The notes beneath the pieces were generated by a model that did not search any database, was not told where the DNA came from, and worked only from the letters and a program-made list of their open reading frames with translations. From Peronospora farinosa (taxonomy: Eukaryota; Oomycota; Peronosporomycetes; Peronosporales; Peronosporaceae), in assembly GCA_947646735.1 (NCBI GenBank), contig CANTFK010000983.1, forward strand, positions 558,001-622,000: a DNA stretch of 64,000 nucleotides. Direction: 5' to 3'. The translations under genes and the position numbers were made by a program. Every line of letters begins with the position of its first letter. Within the stretch, counting starts at the first letter, position 1. Positions 1,272 through 60,760 of this stretch are shown here, piece by piece.

Positions 1272-2606
1272 ATGTCACTCGACATTTCTCCTCTTAGAGG
1301 TAGTGCTTTAGCGAACGGTATGTTCACGGCACATAGCATGACGCCTCCTGGCAGTGAGTCACAGACTCTTCGGGACCTCATTGAAGACAACCTTGACGAA
1401 GCGGTTGATTACGAAAGTGACACCGTCTTTGTGGGACCCGATGGGTCCCCTTTAGCCACCCTCACGGGTGAAGATGACACTCGTCATGCACCGAATCCAT
1501 TCCCTGAACGTGGTGCTGCAGATGCGCTAACAGCGTTACGTGACCCGCCTGACGTATCATCAACGGTAACGGTTACCAACCCACTCGACGAGCAGCAACA
1601 GCAGACCATCGACCAAGAGGAAGGCGCCAAGCGCCGGACGAAGAATATGGCTAGGCTTCAGGGCCAGGTTCAAGCCACCTACAGTGGAAGAACGCCTTAA
1701 GGAAGCATCTGGACATTCCCTTTCTGGCTGGGCCATTGGGCCTGAGGCCATTTCACCCGAGGATATCGCTACGCGATCGGCTCTTTGACAACGCTATCTG
1801 GAACCCCATATCACTACGCAAAGCCAATACTTGGCACGCCTCACTAGGCAAGTGCGCGTGTGCACCAATTCCTACCATAAAGGGTGTTCCCATCCTTCTA
1901 TTCGCGGGAGTAACCGAAGAGGAAGAAGATGCGGCTTTTAGCCTCTGGGCGCATTATGCGCGACGTTTAAGCACTGGCTCTACGGGCAAGTGCCGACGTG
2001 GCAGATGTTCGTCTCCAACGGAAAATGCGTTACGATTAAGCTAAGCTGAAGGCCCGAAGAAAGTTGAAGTCTCAACGAACGCAATATACGCCTGCTACCC
2101 ATCACTCCGATGTTTCGGCTACTCCTGTAGCCGCGAGTTCACGACAGGCCGAGGCCGTGAGCTCGCTCGACCTCACCACTGCGGGAGGGAAACACCATCG
2201 CCAACAGGTTAGCCCTGCGCACGACGTTCAAAAACGTCCACGGCGTACGGGCAATCCTGCCGAAGGGGAACCTCGAACTCCCATGAGTTCCACGACTCGG
2301 GATAACCCCGCCACTTTACCAGATACTGGTTTTGACCATGGCGGCGACGCTTCTGCAGTAGACGCTCCACATGGAACTGTAGGTTCCCCTGCGCATCGAG
2401 CAAAGCCGGAGGAGGCCGGTGTATCGGCACAAGCTCATGCCGAGCTTGTTCAAGAGGTGCGGTCCCTTCGTGAGGAGAGGCAGACGATGAACTCCCGGCT
2501 TAAGTCCCTGGAAGAGAGTCGAACCCGAATGCAGGGTCAGCTTGACCTGTTGGCGCAGATGCTTCGTCCCGCGACAGTGCCAGTGGGCTCGGCGCGAGCG
2601 CTTTAG
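1272..2606 (+). pseudogene. TE-A antisense ORF (aORF), degraded
   Basis: An open frame on the strand opposite to gag-pol, starting 32 bp inside the 3' LTR. Part 1 (1272-1700, 142 aa) is acidic, rich in Asp, Glu, Thr and Pro. The middle (about 1680-2045) looks coding mainly in the next frame but has stops. Part 2 (2064-2606, 180 aa) ends with a heptad-like coiled coil (AELVQEVRSLREERQ, then NSRLKSLEESRT) followed by a short tail. Part 2 lies antisense to the chromodomain segment. Two frame changes make it a likely pseudogene. I know no family for it. Its position matches the antisense frames in TE-B, TE-D and TE-F. It could be chance antisense reading; position and coiled coil argue against that. 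Confidence 0.5.
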
Positions 2607-2799
2607 TGTTTACTTGGGACGGATCCCGATACCTTTTGAGCATGCCAACATAGAACACAGGATGTGTACGCAATTTGCGCGGCAAGTTAAGCGTATACGC
2701 TGTGCCTTTCTTGGCAATGACCTTAAGGGGTCCGATAAAGCGTGGGCGCAACTTCGTCTTAAAGACAGCAGATACTACATTATGGTAGATTTTTAACAT
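2209..2799 (-). pseudogene. TE-A integrase C-terminus and chromodomain
   Basis: 2799-2500 encodes the region after integrase, with the GPLKVIAKKGTAYTLNLP and HPVFYVGMLKRYRDP motifs typical of Ty3/gypsy integrase tails. 2430-2209 encodes a chromodomain (VERLLQKRRRHGQNQYLVKW, then RGYPESWNSWE). A frame change separates the two. Chromodomains are thought to steer integration to marked chromatin. Confidence 0.85.
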
Positions 2800-5921: not shown

Positions 5922-5986
5922 GTCTCAATATTACTATGAGTTTCACTCAACGGAGTACGTGCCGTTCCACTAAGTGTCACTGAGCT

Positions 5987-7681: not shown

Positions 7682-7683
7682 AG

Positions 7684-8322
7684 TGTAGCGGAGCTGCACA
7701 ACTCTTCAGCCAGAGGAAGACTTTAGGATGAAAGCCTCTTAGTTCTAGAGAACTAAATAGAGTTAAGGCTAAAAGCCACTTAGTTCTAAGGAACTAATTA
7801 AGCGACTGAAAGTCACCCTTTTCTAAGGAACTAGGAAAGAGACTTTAGTCAGTCAAGCAGAAGCTTAAGGTTCAGAGAACCAACGCACAGAGTGCAAGAA
7901 CAAGCTAGAAGCTTAGAGGTTCAGAGAACCAACGCACGAAGTGCACAAGAGAACAAGTCAGAAAGACTTGCGATCTTAAACTCAAAAGGAGAACTAATTT
8001 TATTTATGCTTTAAGATTTTATGAATAGTCCTACTCTAAGTACACTACACTAGATTAATTACTATAATAGTAATTATTATATGCAGACTTTGCTATTGAA
8101 CGACGTATCGTCTAAACATCTGTGTATGATGTACTTAGTACAGCGTTAGTGATTTATCGAATCCCAATCGATAATATACGGTATTACCGAATACCGTATC
8201 TTAACGCTCATACTTAATACCTCTTTAAAGAGAAGTATAATAATGCATTATATGCAATACAAAGGGGAGTTTAACCGTAAACTCTCGGAAAGACGCTACA
8301 ACCGTCGTGTAACCCCGTTACA
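7684..8322 (-). repeat. TE-A 5' LTR
   Basis: 639 bp, about 99% identical by eye to 602-1240. As the upstream LTR on the minus strand, it should carry the element promoter. No clear TATA position could be assigned. Confidence 0.95.
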
Positions 8323-9966: not shown

Positions 9967-10414
9967 TGTAATGGGGCACCACTGATTACAGTATAGTCTA
10001 CTTTCACTGATTACAGTGAAAGCAGGTGCCTCAAAACCTCACGTAAACGTGAGCAGAGGAAGCTTATCAACTAAACAAACGCTTAGTTGAGAGTGAAAAG
10101 AAAATTGTGCTTAATATAGTTAACTATCTAACAAAATTAATCTGTTATAACCTATGTTAACTATATTAAACTACAACTATGTATGTTGACAACTTGCCCT
10201 CCACTCATTGCGCGCGTCCATCGGTCATTGTTCAGCGCGTTGGTTGATATGATGGCCCATATCAACCAATGAGAGGGCATCTCCAACTTGAAGGAGATCT
10301 AGGGACAATATCATAGGAAAAGATAATATTGTCAAATATTATTAGTTATAATAATATTTTTTATTGACACTTCATTTAAGTGTCAATATTATGTAACGGG
10401 CTCACCCCGTTACA
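9967..10414 (-). repeat. TE-B 3' LTR
   Basis: 448 bp, matching 17641-18103. The terminal 23 bp (10392-10414) are a self-complementary unit: TGTAACGGG, 5 bp, CCCGTTACA. Other stems include ATTGACACTT/AAGTGTCAAT near 10366-10390. Confidence 0.95.
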
Positions 10415-10511: not shown

Positions 10512-12220
10512 ATGACAAAGTCAATGCGCGTCGCTGCTAAGGCAGCTAAGAGCTCGGCTGCACGCCTGTGTGCAGCCGCTACTGAGGCTTCACAGCCTCA
10601 GCCAGCAGACATATTAGTGTCTGCTGGAAGTCAACATCAGCCTGCAACGCCTGTTGCAGGTTCACGTAGCGCTTCGCCACGTGAAGATGTTGACCCAGAG
10701 CTAGCCGTTGACTACTCTGGTACGCATCCGACTCAAAGCCACCTGTGTCACTCCCGGGCTCTCCCCGGGGTGATACCTCGTCGTCAAATGTTACGAAGAG
10801 GGATCGTGGTACATTGAGTGAATCAATGTACCGTGAAATGTTCGGGTCGTCTGATGAATCAGACGACTCGCCAAACGAGTCGAAGGATAGTGACTCGGGT
10901 AGGGACCGTAAGGGTGATGTCAGTGCTTCTACTGATATCAATGCTCGTAGTGTCGATACTTCTGTTGACACTAACGCTCGTGGTGTCGGTACTTCTATTG
11001 ACACCACGCAGGAGGCTTTAGACCGCAACGTATTGCGTCTTGCTCCTGATCGCAAGCCATGGATGCTACCTAAGCATCTGCTTGATCGTTGGTCTGGAAA
11101 GACCAACGAACGGTTCCCCATACCGTTGTTTGATGCGTCAAAGCTTCATGGCCTTGACGCCAGTGCGAAGAACTTTCGCACTGAGAACGATTATTACATC
11201 GATGTGTTTTTTGAACATCAATGGTATGGCCCACACAAGAAGCGTGAGGCTGACGCGTTCCTCCAATCTTGGAACGCGTTTATCACCAACGTTTTAAACG
11301 TTGGGAAAGAGGCTTGGTTTCAAAGACTTTATGCTAGCCGCAATAAGTTTGAGAAACGAAGTACGTCCGGTGCATGCTATCGTTTGCACCGGTTATCTAG
11401 AGAGGCAGGCCTGTTATGCCTCTCTTGGGGCGACCCATGCCCGGGGTGCCTGAGCACCTCGTCAAGAGCGCCTAAGGAGGAGTACCTCCTTACTGAGCCC
11501 TGGTGGAGGGCTCACATCTCTTCTGAGATGCGTGAAGGGATTGCTACTTTGTAATCCCTCTACGAGCGCGCTGGGCGCTCGTTTTCCGATGGTCCTTCAC
11601 CACCGGGTGTCCCTTGTCGTACTGTTCGACAAGGCCGGGAACGTCGGCCATCAGTTGGGACCGATGTTCCCAGCTATCCGCCGAAGGCGGATAGCCACGC
11701 CACCGGACGAGATAACTCGTCCGACGTCCCTTCACCTCGCGGTGCTTTAGTAAGCGTTCCACGAGGAAGCGCTTCCCACCATGGGAGTCCACCAGCGGAT
11801 GCGGTGGTGGAGGAAAAACCCTGTCCGATTCTTTCATCGGACTTGGCTGATGAGTTAGACGGGTTTGCCCGTGTAACTCGTGAGCTCCGTTGTGATGTTG
11901 ATCACGAACGGGATAAGCGTCGTCGCTTAGAGGACATTGTGCGACAGCTTGGGTTTGACCATGAGAAGTCTCGGGCAAACAATGCTGTCGCACTATTGGA
12001 GAATGAACGGCGGCTTCATTCTCTAAGTAACGAGCTGGCGACAGCTCGTCAGGAGATCGTCCAATATCATGGGAAGATCTCATCTCTACACGACCAGATA
12101 TCGAATCTGGTTCGTGAAAACAAGAATCTGAAGGGGATTCTTGAGAGTAATGGCTATCTTTGTCGTTCGAAGAATCCGCGTACTGAACGTACGGACGAAG
12201 ACGTCCCACGTAAAACGTAG
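10512..12220 (+). pseudogene. TE-B antisense ORF (aORF)
   Basis: An opposite-strand gene starting 98 bp from the 3' LTR. The first frame (10512-about 10735) is Ala/Ser/Gln-rich. After a one-base shift the frame 10745-11554 (269 aa) holds an acidic Ser-rich part (FGSSDESDDSPNESKDSD) and a domain with SWNAFI (residues 175-180), CPGC (232-235) and WRAHI (254-258). One TAA (11552-11554) interrupts the same frame, which is otherwise open to 12220. The last 138 aa are a long coiled coil (ELDGFARVTRELRCDVDHER, SLHDQISNLVRENKNLKGIL). The 3' 677 bp are antisense to the chromodomain frame. Family unknown. The same position and part of the domain recur in TE-D. Two lesions suggest this copy is inactive. 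Confidence 0.6.
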
Positions 12221-12719
12221 GATGCGTACGCATCCTGCGTGGCAACTCGATCGTGTATGCGTTTCCTAGGCGGCACAATACACGAAACGGGCCGATGTAC
12301 TTGGGCAACAATTTATTGCTGCCTACGTTAGTCACTACATGTTTAGGTAGGTTTACTGTTGACAGTAAAACTAAATTACCTTCAATAAATGTTTGAGCAT
12401 TTGCCCTTCCATTATTGTCTGCGTTTCGCTTTTGCTTATCCACCGCTTCTGCGATGGAGGCTTGCACGAAACGGACTACCGCTTCACGAGTCAGCAGGAA
12501 ATCCTCAGTTGACTCGTTGCTTTTGGCTGCAGTGCATTGTGAGTGCACTGCAGAGATATCGGTTACTAATTCAGCGAGAACAATACTGTTCTCACTTGTG
12601 ATACCTCGAACGATGCTGATATCTTCAGCATCGTTATCAGTAAGAGCGTCATCGCTCTTACTTTCTTCCTCTTCACCGAAGTCGAATGGTACGACTTCGG
12701 TTACTTTCGCGTCGACCAT
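11544..12719 (-). CDS. TE-B integrase tail and chromodomain
   Basis: 391 aa. The GPF/Y-type tail is IGPFRVLCRLGNAYTIELP, then HPTFYVGRLRPY. A Ser/His-rich spacer leads to the chromodomain KRFLVERLLKHREVKGRRTS, YLVRWRGYPPSADSWEHRSQ near residues 310-360. About half of this frame is read on the other strand by the aORF. Confidence 0.85.
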   Translation of the reverse strand: MVDAKVTEVVPFDFGEEEESKSDDALTDNDAEDISIVRGITSENSIVLAELVTDISAVHSQCTAAKSNESTEDFLLTREAVVRFVQASIAEAVDKQKRNADNNGRANAQTFIEGNLVLLSTVNLPKHVVTNVGSNKLLPKYIGPFRVLCRLGNAYTIELPRRMRTHPTFYVGRLRPYVQYADSSNDKDSHYSQESPSDSCFHEPDSISGRVEMRSSHDIGRSPDELSPARYLENEAAVHSPIVRQHCLPETSHGQTQAVAQCPLSDDAYPVRDQHHNGAHELHGQTRLTHQPSPMKESDRVFPPPPHPLVDSHGGKRFLVERLLKHREVKGRRTSYLVRWRGYPPSADSWEHRSQLMADVPGLVEQYDKGHPVVKDHRKTSAQRARRGITK

Positions 12720-12802
12720 AACGTCGTCGCGTGATGAGCAAGAGCCAGATTGGTTCTCGCTCGAGCGAGTCCCTCCCCCCCTTAAATTAGAGTCACCCTC
12801 TA

Positions 12803-13889
12803 CTAAGGTGGGACACGTGGATGGCGAAGGCCATTCACGTAGAACGGTGTATGCGTCGTGGAGGCATGCACGGAGTTGTTGATGGCGAATTCGACCATCG
12901 ACAAGAACTCACTCCAACTCGTAAACGAGTGGAAGTACCCTCGAAGAATCTCTTCGAGGACTCGATTGGCGCGTTCAGTCTGACCATCAGTTTCTGGATG
13001 GTCAGAAGTAGACATTGTGAGCCGTGTTCCAAGTGTTTGGAACACGGAACGCCAAAACTCAGCCGTGAACCGGGGGTCCCTCGGACACAAGTTTACGGGG
13101 TAAACCGTGCAATCGAAAGATTGTATCGATAAACACTCGAGCACAGCCCTCTGCTGTGATCGACTCAGGTAAAGCAACAAGATGTACCATTTTGCTGAAC
13201 CTGTCGACAAACACGAGAATACCATTATTCCCGTGAGCGTCTTTGGGAAACCCATAGACGAAGTCCATTGATACGGACTCCCAGCACTCTGCCGGAACAG
13301 GTAGAGGCTGCAATGGTGCACGGAGTGAAGGACTAGGCTTCACTCTTTGACACACCTCGCAAGCACGCACGTACTTGCGCACAAACTTGTACTGGCGTGG
13401 CCAGTAAAAGGCGCGACTGACCGTGAGGTAAGTCTTCTCACGGCCGCGATGCCCACTTATTGGTGCATCGTGACATTCAAACATGATCCGTAACCTGAGA
13501 TCATGTTGTGGCGGTACAACGACACGAGGCGTGTCGTTGTTGATGGCTGTGTAGTACAGTAAGCCGTTCCGCTGGGTGTATCGATCGAGAGAAGATCGAT
13601 ACATGGCAGGCAAGCGCTTCTTAGCTTGGTTGGATGGGTCCTTGAGGTACTCCATCAGGCGTACAAGATCATTATCTTGTGCGCATGCCCTTCTAATGTC
13701 GTCGAGTAAGCTCGACGACAAGACGCTGGTACTCAGCGTGGCGACAGTGGTGTTTACATCACTGTCGGATTGCACAGTCGGCTCTATGTCAGGCCGACGT
13801 GAAAGAGCATCGTCGACGACGTTAAGTCGTCCCGGCTTATACTCCACGGAGAAGCTGTACTCTGCGAAGAACGACAACCATCTCGCCAT
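12803..13889 (-). pseudogene. TE-B integrase, frameshifted
   Basis: 13889-13059 gives the end of RNase H, the zinc module ([31 protein letters not shown]) and the first core Asp (SMDFVYGFPKD). The core continues in another frame (13321-12803) with PRDPRFTAEFWRSVFQ, DGQTERANRVLEEILRGY and STTHTPFYVNGLRHPRVPP. A frame change near 13075 falls just after the second catalytic Asp region. Confidence 0.85.
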
Positions 13890-13912
13890 TCGTTGCGAGA
13901 GGTGTGGACTAT

Positions 13913-15056
13913 TTACAGCCGTGCGTAGTGACGCATGGTCTGTATATACAATGAACGGTCTATCTCCAAAGAGATGACGCGAAACTTAGCCAGTGCATAC
14001 TTCATGGAAAGGAGTTCCTTGTCGTGCACCCGGTAATTGCGCTCGGCCGGTTGCAGCTGACGCGATTGATAACAGACGACACGCTCTGCGCCGTCTGTAT
14101 CATATTGCATCAGTGCGCAGTAGATTGCAAAGTCGCTGGCGTCACAGAACACATGAAATGATCTGTAATGATCTGCAATCGCCAATACTGGCGATTGCAT
14201 CAAGCTTTGCTTGATACGTTCAAAGGAACGCTGACAGTCGGCGTTCCAGTTCCACTTTACATTTTTCTTGAGTAAACAAGAAAGATGTACTTTCATATCA
14301 GCGTAGTTGCGCGAGGACTTGTGCAAGCACGCCGATAGCCCAAGGGACTTCCTTAGTCCCTTGACATCGACTGGCACTGGCCAGTCGGTGATTACCTTGA
14401 TCTTCTCTGGATCAGGGCGTACGCCGTTCTTTCCGACGATGCAACCCAAGAAGTGGTATTTCGCTAGCTGCGAATATACACTTCTTGAGGTTGGCGTACA
14501 ACTTATGCTCGCGCATAAGTGTAAGAACCTTACGGACGTGGATTCTATGGACTTCCACGTCTGTTTTCCCGTCCATAGCTCGACTATGGACGAACACATT
14601 ATCGAAGTAACTCGGTGCGAATTCGCGCACCGGTCTCAATAGATGTGAAACACATCTATTGAATGTGGCTGGTGCATTACTGAACCCTTGCGGCATCACT
14701 AACCATTCCCAGAGCATACCACTGGGAGTGCTCACTGCTGTGTACGGGATGTCCCGTTCACGCATTAGGATCTGATGGAAACCATCCATCAGATCCATGA
14801 ACGAAAAGATGGTACTCTTAGACATACCATCTATGATTACGTCCTTTCTCGGTATCGGCGTTTGTGCCGGTATCGTTGCAGCATTCAACTTATTGAACGC
14901 GTGCACTATCCGCCACCCTCCTGTGGCCTTGCGCACACAGAAGGTCAGAGAGCTGTGAGGTGAAGTTGACTCCCTCACATGGCCCGCTGCTAGGCGATCG
15001 GCAAAGAACTTGTCGATCGCCTCGACCTGTTTCCGAGGCAGTGGCCACTGCTTCAT
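13913..15056 (-). pseudogene. TE-B reverse transcriptase and RNase H
   Basis: RT frame 15056-14412 contains [54 protein letters not shown] and the catalytic box SYFDNVFVHSR. The second Asp of the usual Y-x-D-D is Asn here (GAT to AAT). That residue binds the catalytic metal, so activity should be lost. RNase H follows in 14599-13913 ([37 protein letters not shown]). One frame change joins the parts. Confidence 0.9.
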
Positions 15057-15062
15057 GACACA

Positions 15063-16390
15063 CTATTTTGTGCCAGGAACAAGGTAGATCTCGTGTCGAG
15101 TACCTTTATCCTTAGGCAACTCGCACGGAACGGATTCAGGGAATACATCCTTGAATTCGACCAAATCCTTGTACAAAGGATTTGACTTCAGCGACTCCCA
15201 GGATTGCGATGTATATCGTTCAATCCGAGTCTTCTCATCAAGGACACTCTCGTCCATTGATGAGCTGCTGAGAACCCGTTCGTTCTCGGCAAAAACTGTT
15301 GCTGACCGAATGTCAGTCATGTACTCGTCCTCTGCGACGAGCACACAGATCTGCTTGACTTTGCCACTACGCAGATCACGCAAGAACCTTTTAGGTTCTA
15401 GCGTAGGCAACTGAGTTATCTCCGAAGTTAACTTCGGAGGCGCGATCAGATCAAGCGTATAAGCGCCTACGCTTGATCCGTCATTAACCAAGACGTTCAA
15501 CGTCTCGGTTTCCTCCTGGGGACTTATTCCCTCAGGGCACTGGGGACTTATTCCCTCAGTGATTATTTCCTGGGGACTTATTCCCGCAGGCTCGATGGAA
15601 CCTGTTCCATCGACTTTCTCTAGCTGTGGTGGCGCAACCACAGCGAGATCCTCTACGATCAACTCTCCAGTTGATCTAGGATTACCGTGTTGCCGCTTCT
15701 GGGCAACCGGTTTACTCTTCGGTGAATGCTGCCCTCTAGGCGAGCATTCATGTCCCGGTCCACTCGACTTATTCGAGTGGTGGAACTTCGGCGCTGCCTG
15801 TGCTTGTGCACAGCCGCCGGCAGCTTGCTCCACAGCGTGACTGTCTGTCACGCTGAGTTCTTGTGCAGTCGTACTAACGACCGAACCACAAGTGAGGCCA
15901 TCACACTCACTCGTAGTACATTCACACGCTTGTGAACGCTCCAAGACATTCATCAGATGGCCATCTGATGAACAAGCGGCAGGCACTTCACGATTCGATG
16001 CTGCCAACTGACCCATGGCTCGTACCTTCTGAGCCATGGTAATCCTAGGATGACATCAAATTTGTCATCCAGATCAAGTACGATGAAATGATCATCGTAC
16101 TTTTTGCCTTCAAGCGTGTAGTGAATTCCCACTACACGTTTCTTTACTGTTACGGATGCGCCAGTTGCAAGGCGCACCGTCATCCTCGTTGGAGGGGTCT
16201 CGCGCTCAACATATTTGAGCCTACGATCATCTAGCGATTGGCGTCGAACAAAGTTGTTCGAAGCCCCACAATCAACTAGGGCGCGAAGTGACATGTTCTT
16301 TGTCACTTCGATCTTCAATGTGATGAGGGATACCTCATCACTGGGAGCGGCAACACACAGTGACTGTGTGTTGGGAGCAACCTTCGTCAA
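15063..16390 (-). CDS. TE-B protease and protease-RT linker
   Basis: 16390-15953 carries the protease, with LRALVDCGASNNFVRRQ as active site (DCG instead of the usual DSG/DTG) and DVILGLPWLRRYEPWVSW. 16037-15063 is a 324-aa linker with repeated GISPQ units (around 15520-15600), ending in RT's first motif HEIYLVPGTK. The two frames overlap. The protease frame is -1 relative to gag and runs open back to the slippery site at 16462. Confidence 0.8.
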
Positions 16391-17640: not shown

Positions 17641-18103
17641 TGTAAAAAAATGGGGCACCCTCCGACTATACTGATTACAGTATAGTCTACTTTCACTGAT
17701 TACAGTGAAAGCAGGTGCCTCAAAACCTCACGTACACGTGAGCAGAGGAAGCTTATCAACTACACAAACGCTTAGTTGAGAGTGAAAAGAAAATTGTGCT
17801 TAATATAGTTAACTATCTAACAAAATTAATCTGTTATAACCTATGTTAACTATATTAAACTACAACTATGTATGTTGACAACTTGCCCTCCACTCATTGC
17901 GCGCGTTCATCGGTCATTGGTCAGCGCGTTGGTTGATATGATGGCCCATATCAACCAATGAGAGGGCATCTCCAACTTGAAGGAGATCTAGGGACAATAT
18001 TATAGGAAAAGATAATATTGTCAAATATTATTAGTTATAATAATATTTTTTATTGACACTTCATTTAAGTGTCAATATTATGTAACGGGCTCACCCCGTT
18101 ACA
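17641..18103 (-). repeat. TE-B 5' LTR
   Basis: 463 bp. It carries about 15 bp near its left end that the other copy lacks. The same terminal self-complementary 23-bp unit lies at 18081-18103. Confidence 0.95.
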
Positions 18104-32406: not shown

Positions 32407-32484
32407 TGCTTATTCGTTTGTGGGCGAAGGGTTTTCGACAGTTGAGACTCACGGTTGGTGAGTGCTGTCATGAGAAGGGGGTGA

Positions 32485-48478: not shown

Positions 48479-48921
48479 CCAGTTCCACGACACGTGAAGG
48501 ATCTGCGCCAATTCCTTGGGATCGCTAATTACTTGCATAAGTACAGCAAGAATTATGCGGAGCGGAATAAGCCATTGTCTGACCTTTTGAAAAAGGATAC
48601 AGAATGAACTTGGTATAAGGAGCAAGTAGATGCGTTCACATAAGTGAATCAATCTCTTGTAGAGGCACCGGTCTTGGCATTGCCAGACGCGGATAAGCTT
48701 TTTAGCGTCGTCTGCGATGCAAGCAATTTTTCAATCGGCAGCGCGCTCATGCAGAAGGATGACAACGGCGTTGACCGTGTCATATCGTATCAGTCTCGGC
48801 TTTTGAAAGCCGCCGAGCTGAATTACCCTGTTCATGACAAGGAGCTACTTTCAATTAAGCATGCCCTTGTAAAGTTTCGTGTGCACCTCTTGGGCACCGA
48901 ACCTTTTGTGGTTTATACGGA
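48479..48921 (+). pseudogene. TE-E RT connection and RNase H, cut by TE-F
   Basis: HVKDLRQFLGIANYLHKYSK, then FSVVCDASNFSIGSALMQKD and [20 protein letters not shown], ending PFVVYTD at the TE-F junction. Two more stops interrupt the frame (48605 and near 48640). Confidence 0.85.
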
Positions 48922-50357
48922 TGTGGAGAAGTGCTAGAGAAATGGGGGGCCCTTCGTAGTTATTATAACAACTGGCGGGAAAGATCTCGGTCACTCTCTT
49001 GAATGAGTGACAGGGAGTGACCAGGGTCCCGAACTGGTCCAAGGTCCCGAGTTCGGAGAAGATACTAGGATGCCCTACACTACAGACCAAAGGACCAGTG
49101 CTGCTAGGACAGCTTAAGTTGACCCCAGGTAACAGGTGGGTCCCAGACAACAGGTGGACCCAGGTGACCGGTGGACCCCAGGCAACAGGTTGACCCAGAC
49201 AACAGGTGGACCCAGGTGACAGGTGGACCCCAGGTAGCATGTGGACTCCAGGCAACATGCGGACCCCAGGTAACAGGGGCCCAGGGGTACCAGGATACTA
49301 GGGCCCAGGGGCCTAGGGGTGCCAGGGTACGGGGCCTAGGGGTACCAGGGTGCCGGGGCCCAGGGGCCTAAGGGTACCAGGATACTAGGGCCCAGGGACC
49401 TAAGGGTACCAGGGTACCGGGGCCTAGGGGTACCAGGGTGCCGGGGCCCAGGGGCCTAAGGGTACCAGGGTACTAAGGCCCAAGGGCCTAAGGGTACCAG
49501 GGTACCAGGGTACCGGGGCCCAGGGGTACCGGAATACCGGGGTACCGGGGCCCTGGGGTACAGGGGCCCAGGGGTACCGGGGCCTAGGGGTACCAGGGTG
49601 CCGGGGCCCAGGGTACCGAGGCCCAGGGGTACCAGGGCCCAATGTCCGAGGGTGCAGAACCGGTACAAAGAATATCGAAGATTACAGAAAGTACAGGGTA
49701 CCAAGGAGCCAGTCCTTCCTCCAAGAGTCGGCACGTGACACTTTCCAGATCAAAGGGTTAGGGTTAGGCAAGAAAAGCATACAGAGAATAAGATAAATAA
49801 ACACACTCGAATTTGCATTACACGTGGCAGCTTTAAGCGCCCCTCCTAAGCTTCTCCGTCGCTACACCTCTTCCGGGCGGGATACCCTTTGGCCCCCCGA
49901 CGTCCAGCAGGTGTTAGACGGCTCAAGCAACGCAAGTTGAACCTCAGGATAGTTGGCCTGAGGTGTCAAGTAAGTGTCAACACTCTACGACCCGCTACAG
50001 GAAGCGGTTTCCCTACGGGGAAGAACACAAAGGGGTCCAAGGACCAAAAACAGTCAGCCACCAAAGGGGTACATAGTACCAGGTGCATCGCTCTCGACTA
50101 AGTCGATTGAGCCCAAGAAACCCGGTCCCAAGTGAAGTATATCCACTCGGGGACCACCAAGTCCAAGTCTTATACAAAGACCAAGTTTAAGTCTTCTACG
50201 TCAACCGAGGAGCAAGACCAGCCAAGCCGACGGGTACACAAGGTGAGACCCAAGGCCAATACGACACGGTATCGGGGTACCCCCTCCGTAAGTCGGCAGT
50301 CCGGCGCTGTGTGTGTTTGTGGATCTCCTACGTTGTTTGAGAATCCACTCCACCACA
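48922..50357 (+). repeat. TE-F 5' LTR with GC-rich internal repeats
   Basis: 1,436 bp. 49260-49640 is a mosaic of short ggtaccagg / ggggcccagg units. It is 143 bp longer than the 3' LTR because more of these units are present. Confidence 0.93.
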
Positions 50358-52877: not shown

Positions 52878-53477
52878 TTGTTGCATTTATGCATTTGTGG
52901 AGAAACACCCCGTGGAGAAGGTCAATAAGTTGGATGAATTGATTGGAAATACATCGGGCTTTTGCATTAATTCTGTTGCTGCTGTGGCCAATGCATGTAT
53001 ACCTCACGTTTATTCCCGAGGGGAGACTATGATGACATTGGATTTATTGCCGGGAGAGTCAAGAGGATACTGGAAACACCATGCCCCAGGAAAGTGGTTT
53101 AAGCAAGCCAAGGCCTCTGGGAAAGTTAACAATATTCGTGCGAATCTACTGTTTGATTCTGGTGCCGAGATATCTATTTTGGATATCGCCTTTGCTCGTA
53201 AGGCAGGCTGCCAGATTAACACAAGCGAGAAACAAGAGTGTGTGGGCATTGGAGAAGCAGTTTAAACCACGGAAGGGCGAACGAAGATCAAGATAACGTT
53301 GAATGGTGTATTAGTATACTTCTTCAATGTGTGGGTCGGGTCCATGGCCGGCCAGGATGTGCTACTAGGAATGGACTTTATGGTGCCAGCTGGAATTCGT
53401 TTGGACATGGCGGACGGAACTATTTGCTTGCCAGACGAAGTTCGAATCCAGCTGACAGGTCGCAAGACCTTGTATAG
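52829..53477 (+). pseudogene. TE-F protease
   Basis: Frame 52735-53265 contains ANLLFDSGAEISILDIAF (DSG). After a single TAA (53263-53265) the same frame continues with WVGSMAGQDVLLGMDFMVPA, the protease C-terminal motif. Only that stop interrupts the enzyme. Confidence 0.8.
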
Positions 53478-54789
53478 TGGCCATATATCTGAGGTAAATT
53501 TGGGCCAGTACGTGAATTTACCGGCGACAAAATATGTCGAGGTTCCGCTGAAGAAGGTTACGTCGGACCAGTGGAAATTATGGATGACCCGGGGAGACAG
53601 ATGGGTGACTACGATGATCCAAGGACATGGACATCGTCAATTCTTGAGGGCCACCAATGTGAGTGACAAGGACCTGATCCTACACGAGGATACTAAGCTG
53701 GGCATTTGGCTGACTAAGGACCGGGTTCCCCGGGCCCAAGGATTCGTGTCAGTTGGTTCTAGAAGGTACGCTGAATGGAAAAATCTAGCCTACCAAGCAA
53801 CCACCGACGAGGAGGATGCAGAAACCACTCATGAAGAAGTATACCAAGGTCCGATGGTCGAGAAACCTCAGTACGTGACTCCACATAAAATGTTGCTACG
53901 GACGGGGACACAAGTGCCAGTGGTTAACGCGGTGCACGAGTCTGTTATGAGGGACCCTGAGTCATTGCCATTAGATCAGGAATCTGGAGGGGAGGCCGAC
54001 GATAGAGGTCAACCATCTAGAGCTAGCGTGGGCAACGAAGTATCATCGAAGGATAGGACCGATATGGAGAGGGTCCACCCAGAGGAGGGTCCACCGGTCC
54101 ACCCAGAGGAGGGTCCACCGGCCCACCCAGAGGAGGGTCCACCGGCCCACCCAGCAGGGGGTCCACCGGCCCACCCAGCAGAGGGTCCACCGGTCATCAA
54201 GGCTGAAGTAGATACTCCCGATGACCAAGTCTGTGTTCACGAGAGTGGAGATTTATGTGCCGAAGATATCGAAAAAAATTGGTCTGTTATCCCTGAGGTC
54301 ATCCCATCTACAAACGAAGTTATGTTGGAAGACATCCAGATCCCAGACCCCGGTGATACCCCAAAGGTGGACCGCCTCCGCCAGATTATATGGAGAAAAC
54401 GACATTTGCTGATGGGAAAAGGTAATGCATTACCCCCGGCGGCTCGAAGAGCAGTGTGCGACATTGATGTTGGGAACGCACGGCCAATCGCCCAACGGGT
54501 ACGGAAGGTGGCCCCTCAATTTAGGGAGAAGCTGGCAGACCTGATAAAAGGCCTCTTGTCATCCAAGATAATCCAGCATTCCACCTCCCCATGGGCCAGT
54601 CCAATTGCAATTATTGTCAAGAAGAATGGGGTGGATATAAGGCTGTGCATTGACTACCGGATGGTGAATGATTTAACGCGGCTTATGGTGTATCCTATGC
54701 CTCTCGTGAATGAGTTGCTGGAAGACCTAGATAAGGCCCTGTGGTACTGCTCACTGGATATGGCTAGCGGTTTTGGGTGGTCAGTATGA
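53299..54789 (+). CDS. TE-F pol: protease end, linker, RT start
   Basis: 496 aa. The linker carries tandem HPEEGPP/HPAGGPP units (54069-54195). RT begins with QFREKLADLIKGLLSSKIIQ, SPWASPIAIIVKKNGVDIRL and CIDYRMVNDLTRLMVYPMPL. The frame breaks at a T run near 54765-54768 just after CSLDMASGF. Confidence 0.85.
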   Translation: MNGVLVYFFNVWVGSMAGQDVLLGMDFMVPAGIRLDMADGTICLPDEVRIQLTGRKTLYSGHISEVNLGQYVNLPATKYVEVPLKKVTSDQWKLWMTRGDRWVTTMIQGHGHRQFLRATNVSDKDLILHEDTKLGIWLTKDRVPRAQGFVSVGSRRYAEWKNLAYQATTDEEDAETTHEEVYQGPMVEKPQYVTPHKMLLRTGTQVPVVNAVHESVMRDPESLPLDQESGGEADDRGQPSRASVGNEVSSKDRTDMERVHPEEGPPVHPEEGPPAHPEEGPPAHPAGGPPAHPAEGPPVIKAEVDTPDDQVCVHESGDLCAEDIEKNWSVIPEVIPSTNEVMLEDIQIPDPGDTPKVDRLRQIIWRKRHLLMGKGNALPPAARRAVCDIDVGNARPIAQRVRKVAPQFREKLADLIKGLLSSKIIQHSTSPWASPIAIIVKKNGVDIRLCIDYRMVNDLTRLMVYPMPLVNELLEDLDKALWYCSLDMASGFGWSV

Positions 54790-55811
54790 CCGAACGAGCC
54801 CGTTTAATCTCGGCGTTTGTAACCCCGCTCGGACTTTTTGAGTGGAGACGAATGCCGTTTGGACTGAAGAATGCGCCGCAGATCTATCAGCGGCTGTTGG
54901 ATAATGCTTTATATGGGTTTCTTACGATTTCCTCCGAGCCGGGCTCTGACAAACCAGAGGACCTGTTCGAGGTGGGCCATTCAGAGGTAGACCTCAAGAA
55001 GTCTATATTAGGACGTAGGTCCTATATCGACGACATTTTGGTGACCTCGGAGTCATGGGATGACTTATGCGTGAAAGTGGAACGACTTTTGGAGGTGTGT
55101 GACAAGTGGAACTTATCGATCAGCGCGGTTAAGAGCTGATGGGGCTGTCAAAAGGTAGATTACCTTGGCCACCAAGTATCAGCGGAAGGGCTGGAGGCCC
55201 ACCCTAAGGACCTTCAGTCCTTGGTGGACTTACCGTTGCCCACTACCCTGAAAGCTATGCAGTCGTTTCTCGGGAGTCTTAACTATTACAGTCGGTTCCT
55301 GGAGGACTACGCCATTTATGCATCCATCCTGTACGAATTAAGGGAAGTGGATTACCACGTATTACGAAACCGGATAAGCAGGACTGGGAACATACAGGGA
55401 GATGACCAGGAGGAGGACCGATGGGCCCGGGTGCAGTTAGCATTTGCTATGTTAAAGAATAAGATCGCCACTGCCCCAATCCTCCGCCATTTTGATCCAG
55501 ACCGGGAACCCGTCATTATTGTCTATGCTAGCGAGTGGGCCATCTCGGCATCCCTGGTGCAGGAATATGAAGGGGTGTATATGCCGGTAACTTTCACGAG
55601 TCGGACTTTGAAGCCAAATGAGATCAACTATGGGCTGGTGGACAAGGAAGTGCTGGCGCTATTGCGAATACTACACATCACTGGTCACCCGACCTATCAA
55701 GGTCTTGACCCGACACTCAACGCTGGCGTGGATAGTCCGGTCACCGGGTCTACAAGGTCGCCTGGGAAACTGGGCTGCACTCCTGACTCAATGGACGTTA
55801 GAAGTGGTTAA
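54777..55811 (+). pseudogene. TE-F RT end and first RNase H
   Basis: RISAFVTPLGLFEWRRMPFG-type palm (54800-54880), catalytic box SYIDDILV (55018-55041, intact), one TGA at 55137 (likely former Trp), thumb and connection (TLKAMQSFLGSLNYYSRFLE), and RNase H (REPVIIVYASEWAISASLVQ, YGLVDKEVLALL). A frame change near 55680 leads to the next ORF. Confidence 0.85.
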
Positions 55812-58158
55812 TTGCAAGAAGGGCGAAGATGAAATACTGGGAACATTAGCGGCAAGCATTACGCCTCGCGAAAATGTGGACTCTATTCTATCTTCAATCG
55901 CCCCCAAGGAGCATCCGCGCCAAGCTATCACGGTGGTTCCTCCTATAGTCGAACCTGAGGAAGTCTTGTACGTGGTCAGTTTCGATGGGTCTGCACGAGT
56001 TAAGCGTGGGGGAGGAGCCTGCAGTGCTATTGTGTGGCAACTCCCGGAATGGACGGTAGTCGCCGCTGCTTCCCGGTATTTAACTGAAGCGACAGTAAAT
56101 GAGGCAGAGTATGAAGGCCTATTGTTGGGCTTCCTTCTACTGGAGAACCTGGAGCGTAGACGTCTAGTAGTGTGTGGAGATTCTAACCTGGTCGTGCGAC
56201 AGATGCGAGGAGAAATCGAGTGTAAGGCGCAGGGCCTGACAGTACGACGGGCGAAGGCCCTGGAAAAACTCAGGTCCTGGCCCGTTCACGAGTTTCTACA
56301 CATGAAGCGCAAATGGAACCAAAGTGCAGACCGTCTCGCTAACGCGGCCCTGCAACAGCAACGAGGGGTCGAAATAATACCTGAGGAAGAGTGGAAAGAC
56401 CTCGAAGAGATTAATCGTCTGCCTGAACTCTTGGTACCCAAGAATCCCAGCCCAGCAATGCGAATTACGGCTGTCACGAGGTCTCGGGTCCGGTCCAGGA
56501 TGCCGACAGAGGTTGTGCAAGAAGAGGTGGTGCAACGGATACGAATTGAGCGAATTTCGGCTGCCCAAGACGAAGAAATGTGGATACGCGACTTGAAGCT
56601 CTATTTAAGGGGTGAATGGAGCGGTTTACCCGCAGAAGTGGCGTTGGCATGCGGCAAGATCGAGACGAATTACGCTTTGGATGAGGACGGACTTCTATTG
56701 TATTGCCCGGGTCTGGGGACAGCTGAAGAGGATCGCGATGGGTGGATACGGCTAGTGATACCCGAAAGCCTACAACAAGATTTTCTGCACCATTACCACA
56801 AGAGTCTTGAAGGGGGACACCAAGGAATCGGCCGCACATACCAGCGCATACGAAGGCATTTCCATTGGAGAGGGTTGTTTCGAAGTGTACAGCGCTTCGT
56901 TGGTACTTGTGTCGACTGTGAGACCGGAAAAGGTGGACCCACCTTACGAGGGAAGACCCCAGGAAATGATCGGGCAACCTACCCATTTCAGGTCATCGCG
57001 ATGGATCATATTCCATCGTTGCCCAAGTCGTTTAAGGGAAACACGGAGCTGTTGATATGGGTGGACCTGTTTACTGGTTATGTAATTGCTAAGGCCAGCT
57101 CGTCGAGGTCGGCACAAACCGTGGCAGAAGGGTACGAAGAATGTGTATTTCGAAGGTTTGGGGCCAGTGAGGCGATCCGACACGACAGGGAACCAAGTTT
57201 CATGTCGGATTTCTTTCGCGCTTTCAACCGCATGATTGGGCAAAAGCAGCGGGCCACAATGGCCTACCGGCCGCAGGCCAATGGAACTGCGGAAAGGATG
57301 GTACAGACGATCACCCGAGCTATCAAGATGTATGTGTCGGAGGTGGACCAAAGAGATTGGGATGCATATGCGGAACGGCTCACATTTGCGCTGAACACGG
57401 CGCAGGACCGGGTCCGAAAGGAGACTCCATTCTACCTGGTGCATGGTTGGGACGCACGAAGCACGTTGGAGGCCACAATACCGCTGGGTAGTACCAGGCG
57501 GCGTGACGGTGACCCCCGCCGGTGGCGATATGGCGTACAGCGGCAGTATCGCCGGGCAAGGGAACAAGTCAACGAGTTATTGCGATCGGCAATGGAAAGT
57601 CGAGCCGAGATCCACAATGAAGATGTGGCGGATAGCATGATTGAGACAGAATCTCAGGTGTGGTTGTATTTAGACCGGGTCAAGGAAGGCTATGCCCGAA
57701 AATTGGCCCACCTATGGCATGGTCCATTCCGAGTACGAAAGATGGTGGGGGACCATGCAGCTCGCCTGGATATCAGTGGGACCGATTACCTCATTTACCC
57801 GTTGGTGCACCTTTCGAAGTTGAAGCTAGTTCGGCAATATCCCGACAGACCGAATACGGTGTTGGTGGTGGACGAAACCGATCGAGTGGATTTTGACGAA
57901 GCCCTGCTACCAGAGGATAGCTGGGATGCGGAGTTGGAAGACAATGAGTATGAAGTGAAGATGATTCTTGACAAGCGCATGGGAAGAAAAACTCGGTATG
58001 GTCGTATTCAATGTGAATACCTGGTGCAGTGGAAAGGATACTCCGATCCGTCGTGGGTAGACGAGGTGGACCTCAATTGCGGTGGACTACCTGAGGACTA
58101 CGAACGCAGGCAAGTCACTCGGAATCGTTTTGAGGTGATGCAGAGCCATGAGGAGTAG
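55618..58158 (+). CDS. TE-F second RNase H, integrase and chromodomain
   Basis: 846 aa. After the end of the first RNase H comes a complete second one: VVSFDGSARVKRGGGACSAI (Asp), NEAEYEGLLLGF (Glu), VVCGDSNLVVRQMRGE (Asp) and WNQSADRLANAAL, the order and spacing of type I cellular/archaeal RNase H. Integrase has a zinc module (HYHKSLEGGHQGIGRTYQRI ... CVDC) and a D,D,E core (IAMDHIPSLPKS, IRHDREPSFMSDF, ANGTAERMVQTITRA). The C-terminus is a chromodomain (YEVKMILDKRMGRKTRYG, EYLVQWKGYSDPSWVDE). This is the longest intact pol piece in the window. Confidence 0.92.
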   Translation: MRSTMGWWTRKCWRYCEYYTSLVTRPIKVLTRHSTLAWIVRSPGLQGRLGNWAALLTQWTLEVVNCKKGEDEILGTLAASITPRENVDSILSSIAPKEHPRQAITVVPPIVEPEEVLYVVSFDGSARVKRGGGACSAIVWQLPEWTVVAAASRYLTEATVNEAEYEGLLLGFLLLENLERRRLVVCGDSNLVVRQMRGEIECKAQGLTVRRAKALEKLRSWPVHEFLHMKRKWNQSADRLANAALQQQRGVEIIPEEEWKDLEEINRLPELLVPKNPSPAMRITAVTRSRVRSRMPTEVVQEEVVQRIRIERISAAQDEEMWIRDLKLYLRGEWSGLPAEVALACGKIETNYALDEDGLLLYCPGLGTAEEDRDGWIRLVIPESLQQDFLHHYHKSLEGGHQGIGRTYQRIRRHFHWRGLFRSVQRFVGTCVDCETGKGGPTLRGKTPGNDRATYPFQVIAMDHIPSLPKSFKGNTELLIWVDLFTGYVIAKASSSRSAQTVAEGYEECVFRRFGASEAIRHDREPSFMSDFFRAFNRMIGQKQRATMAYRPQANGTAERMVQTITRAIKMYVSEVDQRDWDAYAERLTFALNTAQDRVRKETPFYLVHGWDARSTLEATIPLGSTRRRDGDPRRWRYGVQRQYRRAREQVNELLRSAMESRAEIHNEDVADSMIETESQVWLYLDRVKEGYARKLAHLWHGPFRVRKMVGDHAARLDISGTDYLIYPLVHLSKLKLVRQYPDRPNTVLVVDETDRVDFDEALLPEDSWDAELEDNEYEVKMILDKRMGRKTRYGRIQCEYLVQWKGYSDPSWVDEVDLNCGGLPEDYERRQVTRNRFEVMQSHEE

Positions 58159-58421
58159 AGGGGAGAGTTTGTCTTGGGAAGGCCAAGATGATGCAAGAAG
58201 GAGGTGGTATGTGTTGCATGCACAGAGATTGGTCAAGTCATGTATTCGAGAAGTGCAGCAGAACAAGAAGAGTGAAGTATTGCTAACCTGTAGAGGACAC
58301 CGAGGGACTACCTACCTAAGATATGGCACCAAAGAGGAAAATTGAGAATGTGCTAGGGATTTCGAGGTGAAATGGCATTATCTCGGCTTATTAAGGATGC
58401 ACTTAAAGCTAGTGATAACCC
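58159..58421 (+). other. Spacer between TE-F pol and aORF ends
   Basis: The two converging genes end 263 bp apart. No further frame or clear terminator was seen. Confidence 0.4.
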
Positions 58422-60760
58422 TCAGGCGGTGTCGGGTGGAGAAAACTTGCCATGGAGACGGGGAACCCCGAAAGCGGGATGCTCGTGGATGTTCTTGTGG
58501 TAAAAGATGCGCCACGGTTCGACATCATCCACCACCTGCAACGCCGCCATAAGCCCCGGTTGAGAGCTCTCCTGGTTGACCCTTGGGGTCCAGTAAGACA
58601 GCTGACGCGTGGGGGTAACGGGCTGGAAGAAGGGGTCCAGCAGGATGTCCAAGTCACAGTGACCTGCTACCATCCCCTGCAGGACCTTCTTCAGCACTCC
58701 CATCCAAGCCTGTGTCGCCTTGGCCCGTCGTTTTTTCCGGGCGTTGTAAATGCGGGAGATGTACGCACTGCCAGAACGAAGAGCTATGGAGAAATGAAGA
58801 CGGTGCCGGTCCTCCCACAAACTCTGGCGCGATGCGTCTACGTAGGCATCGTGGAGCTCCACCAGTCCAACAAACCAGCCGTTTACGGGGAACGAGAGAG
58901 GATACTCGGACTTCGTCTGCTGCTCCCATGGGCGCGAGTTCATCAACAGCCGGAGCTGAGACTCCGTTACGAGACTATTAGTCTCGCCCAGGCGGTCCTT
59001 GGATCTCTTGTCTAAAGGGGGGCCCGGACCCATCCACGAAGCTGGAAGGGTTATGCGGGACCACAGGTCTTTCACGCTCAATTGCGAGATCGCAAGGGGG
59101 CCTACCATAGAGACGGGCCATGGGGCAACGTCTTCGGTCTTGAACAAACTTGGCTGGGCATATCCCGGAATGGATGGGCCCCAGGCGTTGGAACCAGCGG
59201 GACCTTTGGATGCTGGCACCCCTTGATCATCAGAGTCGAGACTCTCAGTATCGGACTCAGAAGGACCGAAAAGCTGGATGAACAGGTCGGAAGGAGGCGT
59301 GGGCGTCTTTTCCGAGCTGGAAGAAGCAGCAGGTGACGTCTGTACTTCGGGAGGAGGATTGGCCATTGGTTTCCCAGTGGACCCCACCGGTTTAGGAAGA
59401 GGCTTGGACGTTGGTTTCCTAGTGGACCCCGCTGATTTCGTTGGTTTCCCAGCAGACCCCGCCGGTTTTGGAAAAGACTTGGACGTTGGTTTCCCAGTGG
59501 ACCCCGCCGGTTTCGTTGGTTTCCCAGTGGACCCCGCCGGTTTTGGAAGAGGCTTGGACGTTGGTTTCCCGGTGGACCCTGCCGGTTTCGTTGGTTTCCC
59601 AGTGGACCCCGCCGGTTTCGTTGGTTTCCCAGTGGACCCCTCCGGTTTCGTTGGTTTCCCAGTGGACCCCGCCGGTTTAGGAAGAGACTTGGACGTTGGT
59701 TTCCCAGTGGACCCCGCCGGTTTGGGAAGAGGCTTGACTTTTGGTCTCCCAGTGGATCCCACCGGTTTGGACTCCGTTGATGTTGGGAGAGGACCGGACT
59801 TGGATGTCCCAGTAGATCCCACGGACGTCGAAGAAGGGCCGGATGTCGTTTTACGAGATAAGTCCACCACCTCTGGAGCGGGTTTCCCCACGGAAGTCAC
59901 CGGGCTACCACGACGACGAGAGGCACGTGATCGAGCCATCGCCGCTAGCAGAGACTCATCGCTGCTACTGGACTCGTCTTCAGGGGAACTTGGGGCACGG
60001 GTGGTCCGACGCTTCTTCGATGAGGAAGGGGCTGGAACTTCGGCAGCAGGAGACCGAGATCTTTTAGCTCTGGAAGGTCCTGGGACCTTAGTCATAGGCG
60101 AGGCAGATCTATCCGCGGCGCTCCGAGCTACGGCCAGCTGTTTCTGGAGTTGGTCCCGTTGGCAGGCGACTTGCTTCACGAGAGATTTAGAGCGGGCCAG
60201 CTCATCTCGAAGTAGTGACACCGAAGATCGGCCGTGGTGGTATCCAACTTGGCCTCCAGCTCTTCTATCTGAAGTGTGAAGCTCGTCACCGTGGCCTCAT
60301 ACTGGCCCCTCCAGTACCGAATCTTGGACCGAGACGCTTCAACTTCAAGCCGATAATCCTTCCGGGTGGCGAGCGCATCTCGGTATTCCGCAATGGTTAG
60401 CTGGTCGGTTTCATGATCGCGGACGAGCTTCCGAATTCGAGCCTCGATCCGGGGAAGATCAACTTTTCCAAGTCGAACGACCTCGTCCACGCGACTCTGC
60501 AAGTCTTGGGCCCGGCGATGCTCAGCCTGATAGGCCTGCTGGAGGGCCCTATTATTGTCAGCAAGGGTCTCCATAACTTGGGCTCGTTCCATCGCCAGCT
60601 GGATCGCTTCTCACGCCCGGGTAACACTCGCATAATCGGGGGGCTCTCCGACAAGGTCTACAGTCGGAATGACCAAGGCAGGGTCAGGTCCAGGCAGTGG
60701 AGGGGTAGACAAACGGCCAGGTGCTGGGGGTTCGTCGGAGAAAGAACTGGAAGAGGCCAC
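58422..60760 (-). pseudogene. TE-F antisense ORF (aORF), about 780 codons
   Basis: An opposite-strand frame starting about 138 bp from the 3' LTR. The frame from about 60760 (GTG; the ATG may be mutated) has one TGA (60613-60611) and continues as 60592-60176, a long coiled coil (DNNRALQQAYQAEHRRAQDL, FTLQIEELEAKLDTTTADLR). It shifts near 60200 into 60221-58422 (599 aa): more coiled coil, a Ser/Arg/Pro stretch, a 10-residue repeat array (KPAGSTGKPT type, 59370-59760), then a conserved-looking 230-aa C-terminal domain (PLAISQLSVKDLWSRITLP, YPLSFPVNGWFVGLVELHDA). It does not overlap pol, so it is not an antisense shadow. Family unknown. Confidence 0.6.
59370..59760. repeat. 30-bp tandem repeat in the TE-F aORF
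   Basis: Units of about 30 bp (plus: ggtttcccagtggaccccgc...) and longer variants, encoding 10-residue blocks on the minus strand without breaking frame. Confidence 0.9.

What the first reader, a model, noticed from the sequence alone, without database searches (positions are those of the whole stretch)
1272..60760. Four Ty3/gypsy elements each carry an opposite-strand gene beside the 3' LTR
Every element here with a complete 3' end and no deletion has a long antisense frame between integrase/chromodomain and the 3' LTR: TE-A 1272-2606, TE-B 10512-12220, TE-D 31027-32406, TE-F 60760-58422. All start 32-140 bp from the LTR and contain coiled coils. In TE-D it is intact over 459 codons although gag and pol have lesions; in TE-F it does not overlap pol at all. 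The layout resembles the antisense HBZ gene of HTLV-1 and antisense ORFs reported in some plant retrotransposons. A regulatory or nuclear-trafficking role is inference. I do not know a description for oomycete elements.
Basis: partly seen in the sequence, partly recalled or inferred. Interest (0 to 1): 0.92.

Follow-up and report, generated by a model that had tools for sequence, protein, structure and literature searches.

The report
Antisense genes in oomycete retrotransposons
Four families of jumping genetic elements in a downy-mildew-like water mould each carry an extra protein gene written backwards at their far end; the gene looks real and has relatives in related species, yet in one family versions with the gene broken have also multiplied.

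Summary
The layout is real. In TE-A, B, D and F a long frame opposite to pol starts 31-132 bp inside the 3' LTR. In the window TE-D is intact, TE-F is intact over 557 codons, TE-A and TE-B are broken; open copies of all four exist elsewhere in the genome. The frames look protein-coding: outside the pol overlap, dN/dS is 0.25 (0.18-0.34) in A and 0.34 (0.18-0.62) in F; B and D are weaker, with intervals reaching 1. Relatives, mostly 40-60% identical, occur in Peronospora and Hyaloperonospora, for D also Phytophthora (F not searched). No known protein family was recognised; each protein has a coiled coil. Against an essential role: 14 of 29 young TE-D elements show no N-terminal half, and the one read has a 146-bp frame-breaking deletion. 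This is the 'aORF-3R' layout known from plant and Botrytis elements; none of nine searches on the theme listed a description in oomycetes. Most likely it makes a trans-acting, perhaps nuclear, accessory protein. Antisense RNA is untested.

The parts
602..1240 (-). TE-A 3' LTR (element on - strand; partner 7684-8322, 99% identical)
1272..2606 (+). TE-A antisense frame (aORF-A), broken here (7 stops); open copies of about 443 residues elsewhere in the genome
2188..5785 (-). TE-A pol remnants (RT, integrase, tail) overlapping the end of aORF-A
7684..8322 (-). TE-A 5' LTR
9981..10414 (-). TE-B 3' LTR (partner 17670-18103, 99% identical)
10512..12220 (+). TE-B antisense frame (aORF-B), broken here; open piece 10826-11554 holds the conserved helical W/Cys region; open frames of 571-657 residues in six of the eight held B loci
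11547..15557 (-). TE-B pol remnants; SH3-like plus chromodomain tail 11544-12719 lies opposite aORF-B
17670..18103 (-). TE-B 5' LTR
25006..25352 (+). TE-D 5' LTR (partner 32479-32828, 97% identical)
26649..31868 (+). TE-D pol in three open pieces (RT; RNase H-integrase; SH3-like plus chromodomain, ending at 31868)
31027..32406 (-). TE-D antisense frame (aORF-D), intact, 459 aa; 32406-31869 does not overlap pol, 31868-31027 (842 nt) does
32479..32828 (+). TE-D 3' LTR
48917..50000 (+). TE-F 5' LTR (boundaries approximate)
53344..58158 (+). TE-F pol, Chronos-like (RVT_3 RNase H, integrase, chromodomain), ending at 58158
58422..60760 (-). TE-F antisense frame (aORF-F): 58422-60095 open from ATG, 557 aa; broken above 60296; open frames of 752-798 residues in four of the eight held F loci; does not overlap pol
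60893..61833 (+). TE-F 3' LTR (boundaries approximate)

Best explanation
Each family carries, between pol (or over its end) and the 3' LTR and on the opposite strand, a genuine accessory protein gene (an 'aORF-3R'). Shown here: position, strand and open copies in all four families; purifying selection on the part outside the pol overlap in A and F, with a weaker signal in B and D; relatives of A, B and D in other Peronosporaceae; no recognised Pfam family; a coiled coil in each. Inferred: the gene is transcribed backwards from a promoter in or next to the 3' LTR; the protein oligomerises through its coiled coil; basic patches in A, B and F and the Arg/Ser-rich middle of D take it to nucleic acid or the nucleus; and it acts in trans, tuning transcription, RNA handling or entry of the pre-integration complex, because TE-D copies with a broken or undetected gene have multiplied beside copies that keep it. 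Probabilities: real protein-coding gene 0.93; trans-acting accessory or regulatory role rather than a cis-essential particle component 0.6; specifically nuclear 0.45.
For: Open copies: by my count of the table, 23 of 56 near-full-length (at least 440 of 459 residues, one stretch) TE-D matches have no internal stop; open frames of about 443 (A), 571-657 (B) and 752-798 (F) residues in held loci. Layout: 72 of 72 held loci (70 distinct, the window's own four included) have the frame opposite the pol tail; they were fetched by the frame. Selection outside the overlap: NG86 dN/dS A 0.25 (0.18-0.34; 20 copies), F 0.34 (0.18-0.62; 4), B 0.46 (0.20-1.46; 5), D 0.63 (0.37-1.14; 22); in A the overlap part is the reverse, pol 0.29 against aORF 1.08. 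Variants in single-change codons: nonsynonymous ones depleted in all four, p = 3e-7, 0.016, 0.0014, 3e-4 for A, B, D, F. Relatives: 67 proteins for A, 52 for B, 9 for D; identity to the first sequence is higher outside than inside the pol overlap: A 0.53/0.44, B 0.50/0.44, D 0.54/0.46. All 25 invariant columns of B and all 7 of A lie outside the overlap, though several rows lack the C-terminal part.
Against: No transcript or protein was seen; nothing here measures expression. With multi-change codons included, B (omega 0.82, p 0.09) and D (0.86, p 0.11) lose significance. Copies share ancestry, so all these p-values are optimistic. In A the wobble-sharing frame -1 also scores 0.32, though it holds about 7 stops per copy; in D other frames score as low as the antisense frame (0.55 and 0.61 against 0.63). 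The coiled coils of A, B and D lie in the pol-overlap part, where selection on the antisense frame is not shown; the two invariant columns of D lie there too. TE-D: 14 of 29 young elements show no N-terminal half, and the longest open pol frames of that set (1,835 aa three times, 1,804, 1,712) are in such copies, against 1,465 in the 15 aORF-bearing ones; one element outside the set has both, an 1,841-aa pol frame and an open aORF. Promoter motifs: the combined INR+FPR motif beats Markov shuffles in one of six upstream stretches (F, 15 of 16, p 0.04 uncorrected).
Confidence: 0.6

Rival explanations
1. Overprinting artefact: the antisense frame is open only because codon usage or constraint in pol keeps stops out of the opposite strand.
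For: In A, B and D part of the frame lies over pol (428, 677 and 842 nt), and there pol is the more constrained frame. D's open non-overlap stretch alone is not beyond chance (0.18).
Against: Large parts lie outside pol (A 301, B 385, D 179 residues; F all) and are open, and in A and F constrained; in A and B the most conserved residues across species lie there.
Confidence: 0.04
2. The useful product is antisense RNA, not protein: transcription from the 3' LTR makes dsRNA or interferes with the sense transcript.
For: Small RNAs in both orientations map along Gypsy elements of P. infestans (PMC3522703, passages); antisense LTR promoters without coding capacity are known (PMC7264820, passages).
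Against: RNA-only function predicts no codon-phase bias; A and F show it, and relatives of A, B and D keep the protein sequence at mostly 40-60% identity between species.
Confidence: 0.08
3. A structural or particle-associated accessory (Gag-helper or Env-like) made from an antisense mRNA.
Against: TE-D derivatives with the frame broken have multiplied, so a component needed in cis is unlikely; no viral model match at E below 1.
Confidence: 0.2
4. A captured host gene that now serves the host, or passenger sequence.
For: aORFs by transduction are known in plants (PMC7264820, passages). Some relatives are annotated as ordinary hypothetical genes in Peronospora and Phytophthora.
Against: Copies are numerous and beside pol in all 72 held loci, and no host family was recognised.
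Confidence: 0.05

Closest known systems
aORF-3R genes of plant Ty3/gypsy elements (maize Grande gene23, rice RIRE2, Silene Retand, PvRetro13)
   Same: Position between pol and 3' LTR, antisense, in many copies of a family, conserved between species, unknown function; Grande's product is nuclear (PMC7264820: passages and section 5; PMC11963269: abstract and passages).
   Different: Host is an oomycete; no TRP28 domain found (0 of 52 alignment members, nor the window's F frame); A, B and D overlap the pol tail by 428-842 nt; elements carry chromodomains, whereas Retand is non-chromovirus.
brtn of fungal Boty (Botrytis cinerea, Sclerotinia)
   Same: Additional antisense gene in a Ty3/gypsy element of a filamentous plant pathogen (known here only from a citation and passages in PMC7264820 and PMC8365987).
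   Different: Sequence relation not tested; the original paper was not seen.
HBZ of HTLV-1
   Same: Antisense gene by the 3' LTR of a retroelement; nuclear product (PMC11963269 passages; start of the abstract of PMC10186651 in a search listing). That HBZ is a bZIP, coiled-coil type protein is recalled.
   Different: No bZIP family match in the Pfam scans; no splicing, promoter or transcription evidence; different virus family.
Chronos elements of Peronosporales and Pythiales (PMC5348765)
   Same: TE-F has an added RNase H (RVT_3), integrase and chromodomain in that order.
   Different: The paper's text never uses 'antisense' and the one section read describes no gene after the chromodomain; RT phylogeny not tested here.

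Membership tests
aORF-3R (antisense additional ORF between pol and 3' LTR) | Located between pol (or over its end) and the 3' LTR | tested here: met
   window; held loci beside the pol tail:
aORF-3R (antisense additional ORF between pol and 3' LTR) | Antisense to gag-pol | tested here: met
   72 of 72 held loci (70 distinct)
aORF-3R (antisense additional ORF between pol and 3' LTR) | Present in most copies of a family | tested here: inconclusive
   TE-D: N-terminal half in 15 of 29 young elements; held loci were chosen by the frame, so other families are not measured
aORF-3R (antisense additional ORF between pol and 3' LTR) | Coding constraint on the frame | tested here: met
   A and F clear, B and D weak
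aORF-3R (antisense additional ORF between pol and 3' LTR) | Antisense transcription | not testable with these tools
   no RNA data; motif scan near negative
Retand-type aORF with TRP28 (PF04195) | TRP28 domain | tested here: not met
   absent at E <= 0.1 in 22, 20 and 10 alignment members and at E <= 1 in the window's F frame
HBZ-like genes | bZIP domain | tested here: not met
   no bZIP family listed
HBZ-like genes | Antisense promoter in the 3' LTR | tested here: inconclusive
   consensus motifs only
Chronos (TE-F) | Extra RNase H plus integrase plus chromodomain | tested here: met
   RVT_3, Integrase_H2C2 and Chromo above cut-off; rve and RT_RNaseH below
Chronos (TE-F) | RT phylogeny | not tested
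   -
Common origin of aORF-A, B, D, F | Detectable sequence homology between families | tested here: inconclusive
   hhalign probability at most 3.3%; profile searches E 1.2 at best between B and D, but their local alignment exceeds all of 300 column permutations, narrowly, with aligned SWxAFI and C-x6/7-C-x2-C (18 of 20 B and 7 of 10 D rows); D model too poor to compare folds

The most novel reading that the evidence does not exclude
Chromodomain-bearing Ty3/gypsy elements of oomycetes carry an old, vertically kept antisense gene whose product restrains or tunes the element in trans; in TE-D, lineages that broke it escaped and now include the copies with the longest open pol frames. A, B and D descend from one such gene, overlapped with pol in the same phase, where each protein's wobble base faces the other's second codon base.
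Probability: 0.15. Interest if true: 0.8.

Novelty: new variant of a known kind. Interest (0 to 1): 0.6.

Why it matters
It extends antisense accessory genes of LTR retrotransposons, known in plants and a fungus, to oomycetes and to their chromodomain-bearing elements, with selection and cross-species evidence rather than an open frame alone. It also gives natural with/without sets (TE-D copies with and without the intact gene) to ask what such genes do, a question the plant review leaves open. The 128 protein clusters found include some annotated as ordinary hypothetical genes, and one as an effector candidate, in downy mildews and Phytophthora; these may really be element genes.

Tried and rejected
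Homology between the four antisense proteins: blastp best E 0.024, B-F; hhalign probability at most 3.3%; B-D only suggestive, not claimed. Promoter motifs INR/FPR/DPEP (definitions from PMC3599244, passages): INR+FPR beat shuffles only in F, weakly; single motifs were listed but not tested against shuffles. Known domains: no family passed a curated cut-off where one was shown (for alignments only the first member's cut-offs are printed); most weak matches are coiled-coil families; PDB sequence searches gave nothing below E 0.03. UniProt's name 'Core-binding domain' on P0039 was not confirmed: no NCBIfam match for P0039, no such family in the Pfam scan that included it, and no recombinase among the PDB second-look rows for the B region. 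Structures: B region block means mostly 81-94 over residues 81-200 with a dip to 56, no convincing fold match; D model mean pLDDT 44, not searched. Selection on the overlap part of A and D cannot be read from doubly silent changes, because none exist in that phase; among pol-nonsynonymous variants the aORF-changing ones are not clearly depleted (p 0.04 to 0.17). I first took the TE-D elements without a full match to carry a different antisense gene; L073 showed a deletion instead. Loss in the other 13 rests on spacing and on absence from the 150 scored matches; one of them (spacing 2113) has a gap of near-normal length and is unexplained.
Full report
Setting. The window lies in a 46.85-Mb assembly of 274 contigs without a name. 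Protein relatives point to Peronospora near P. effusa: the best hit to aORF-A is a P. effusa protein, 95% identical over 96% of the query. That is inference.

Observation. LTR pairs and frames confirm four elements with a long frame opposite to pol that starts 31-132 bp inside the 3' LTR. Only TE-D is intact over its whole length in the window; TE-F is intact over 557 codons; TE-A and TE-B are broken. Searches of the same genome, which score only the best candidates, show open copies of all four families: for TE-D 109 matches, of which by my count of the printed table 23 of 56 near-full-length single-stretch matches have no stop; for A, B and F open frames of about 443, 571-657 and 752-798 residues in held loci. 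In one search a second group of TE-F relatives shares 56-59% identity over roughly the last 260 residues, several with frames of 662-754 residues. Of 72 loci held at that point (70 distinct, since two A loci were fetched twice; the window's own four copies included), 28 A, 8 B, 28 D and 8 F, all 72 have the frame opposite the pol tail. They were chosen by the frame, most A and many D ones for being open, so this is not a survey of all elements.

Is it a gene? I split each frame into the part over pol and the part outside it. NG86 dN/dS outside pol (bootstrap interval over codons) is A 0.25 (0.18-0.34; 20 copies), F 0.34 (0.18-0.62; 4), B 0.46 (0.20-1.46; 5), D 0.63 (0.37-1.14; 22). For A the control frames give 1.26-2.09, except the frame that shares wobble positions (0.32), which holds about seven stops per copy. 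For D the other frames give 0.55-1.12, so the antisense frame does not stand out there. Over pol the pattern reverses in A: aORF 1.08, pol 0.29. Counting each variant once and using codons with a single change, nonsynonymous variants are depleted in all four families, more so among variants shared by two or more copies: omega 0.51/0.29 (A), 0.57/0.48 (B), 0.61/0.50 (D), 0.52/0.28 (F) (hits covering under 60% of the frame were dropped: three for A, one for D, one for F). With multi-change codons included, A (0.66, p 3e-5) and F (0.55, p 6e-4) remain and B (0.82, p 0.09) and D (0.86, p 0.11) do not. In the widest comparisons the ratio rises to 0.7-1.05 in D and 0.4-0.6 in A, among old, decayed copies. 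So coding constraint is shown for A and F and is weak within this genome for B and D. Copies share ancestry, so the p-values are optimistic.

Between species the evidence is stronger for B and D. Against 5.8 billion proteins, with 8,000 candidates scored each time, A has 67 relatives, B 52 and D 9. The named ones are all oomycetes: Peronospora effusa, P. matthiolae, P. destructor, Hyaloperonospora arabidopsidis and H. brassicae between them, and for D also Phytophthora capsici, P. nicotianae and P. megakarya. Identity is higher outside the pol overlap than inside it (A 0.53 against 0.44, B 0.50 against 0.44, D 0.54 against 0.46). All invariant columns of A (7) and B (25) lie outside it, while D's two invariant columns lie inside it; many rows are fragments. 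The linkage of these relatives to LTRs in other species could not be examined.

What the proteins look like. A: acidic start, conserved middle, basic patches, C-terminal coiled coil (390-431). B: acidic/Ser-rich start, helical domain with SWNAFI and C-x6-C-x2-C, C-terminal coiled coil (540-581) and a basic tail. D: region with SWCAFI and C-x7-C-x2-C, a long Arg/Ser-rich stretch, C-terminal coiled coil (378-419). F: N-terminal coiled coil (166-207), basic patches, GSTGKPT-type repeats and a conserved C-terminal part. In A, B and D the coiled coil lies over pol, where selection on the antisense frame is not shown. No Pfam family passed a cut-off that was shown, PDB sequence searches gave only weak, mostly coiled-coil matches, and the B region, modelled with block pLDDT mostly 81-94 over residues 81-200, has no convincing fold match. 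The families are not shown to be homologous: hhalign fails. B and D share motif order and spacing, and their local alignment beats all of 300 column permutations, but narrowly (33.67 against a maximum of 33.63). A, B and D share the same overlap phase, in which, computed for A and D, no change is silent in both proteins. A, B and D pol are related (47-78% in RT or integrase pieces), while F is distant (27-30%) and Chronos-like.

Evidence against a needed role. Among 40 TE-D LTRs scored, 29 are 3' LTRs of elements with pol upstream (a thirtieth row pairs a second LTR with the same pol). Fifteen carry the antisense N-terminal half in the gap and fourteen do not (from; tails). Seven of the fourteen share a pol-to-LTR spacing of 1992-1993 against about 2120. 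One of these was read (L073): a 146-bp deletion within the N-terminal region, bounded by a short repeat (GCATCC), throws the frame out after WNRM. The longest open pol frames of the set (1,835 aa three times, 1,804, 1,712) are in copies without the half; the longest with it is 1,465. An element outside the set has an 1,841-aa pol frame and an open aORF. TE-D's gene therefore seems not to be needed in cis for spread; it may be supplied in trans, be dispensable, or even restrain the element.

Mechanism. The best-supported reading is an accessory protein gene read from an antisense promoter in or near the 3' LTR, making an oligomeric, probably nucleic-acid-associated protein that acts in trans. 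Transcription, location and activity are inferred. The promoter scan with oomycete core motifs (PMC3599244, passages) found no combined motif above shuffles for A, B and D and one nominal hit for F. In P. infestans, small RNAs of both strands map along Gypsy elements (PMC3522703, passages), so antisense RNA of such elements is plausible; an RNA-only role does not explain the codon bias in A and F.

Known or new. Antisense aORFs between pol and the 3' LTR are established in plants (PMC7264820: passages and section 5; PMC11963269: abstract and passages) and reported in Boty of Botrytis (via PMC7264820 section 5 and passages of PMC8365987; the original not seen). For oomycetes, PMC5348765 (section 5 and passages) describes Chronos with no antisense gene; PMC11540230 on P. 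effusa does not use the word 'antisense', nor do the passages seen of the brown-alga survey PMC12477816 describe such a gene. Searches listed no description in oomycetes in this open-access library (listings are capped, and only the papers named were opened; one search was about promoters). Subscription papers and Repbase entries were not covered. I therefore file it as a new variant of a known kind.

Noticed in passing
L073 (491 bases); window 31869-32480 for comparison: A TE-D derivative has a 146-bp deletion bounded by a GCATCC repeat that breaks the antisense gene; six further elements have the same pol-to-LTR spacing (1992-1993).
   Followed up: partly
G000 TE-D elements: A second TE-D derivative class: the match to the pol tail stops 33 residues early and the gap to the LTR is about 330 bp shorter (four of the 40 LTR rows).
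   Followed up: no
window 59334-59768: 30/45-bp periodic repeats inside the TE-F antisense frame encode GSTGKPT-type units; tandem arrays are also reported in about half of plant Retand pol-3'LTR regions (PMC11963269 abstract).
   Followed up: no
window 19624-24893: TE-C: old element with LTRs 77% alike (53 gap positions) and pol remnants on the - strand; no antisense-gene remnant found at E 1e-4.
   Followed up: partly
window 8335-9162: A 275-residue + strand ORF between TE-A and TE-B; no match to the pol or antisense proteins used here.
   Followed up: no
P0061: A Hyaloperonospora protein named 'RxLR effector candidate' is a relative of the TE-B antisense protein; the name may be a misannotation of an element gene.
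   Followed up: no
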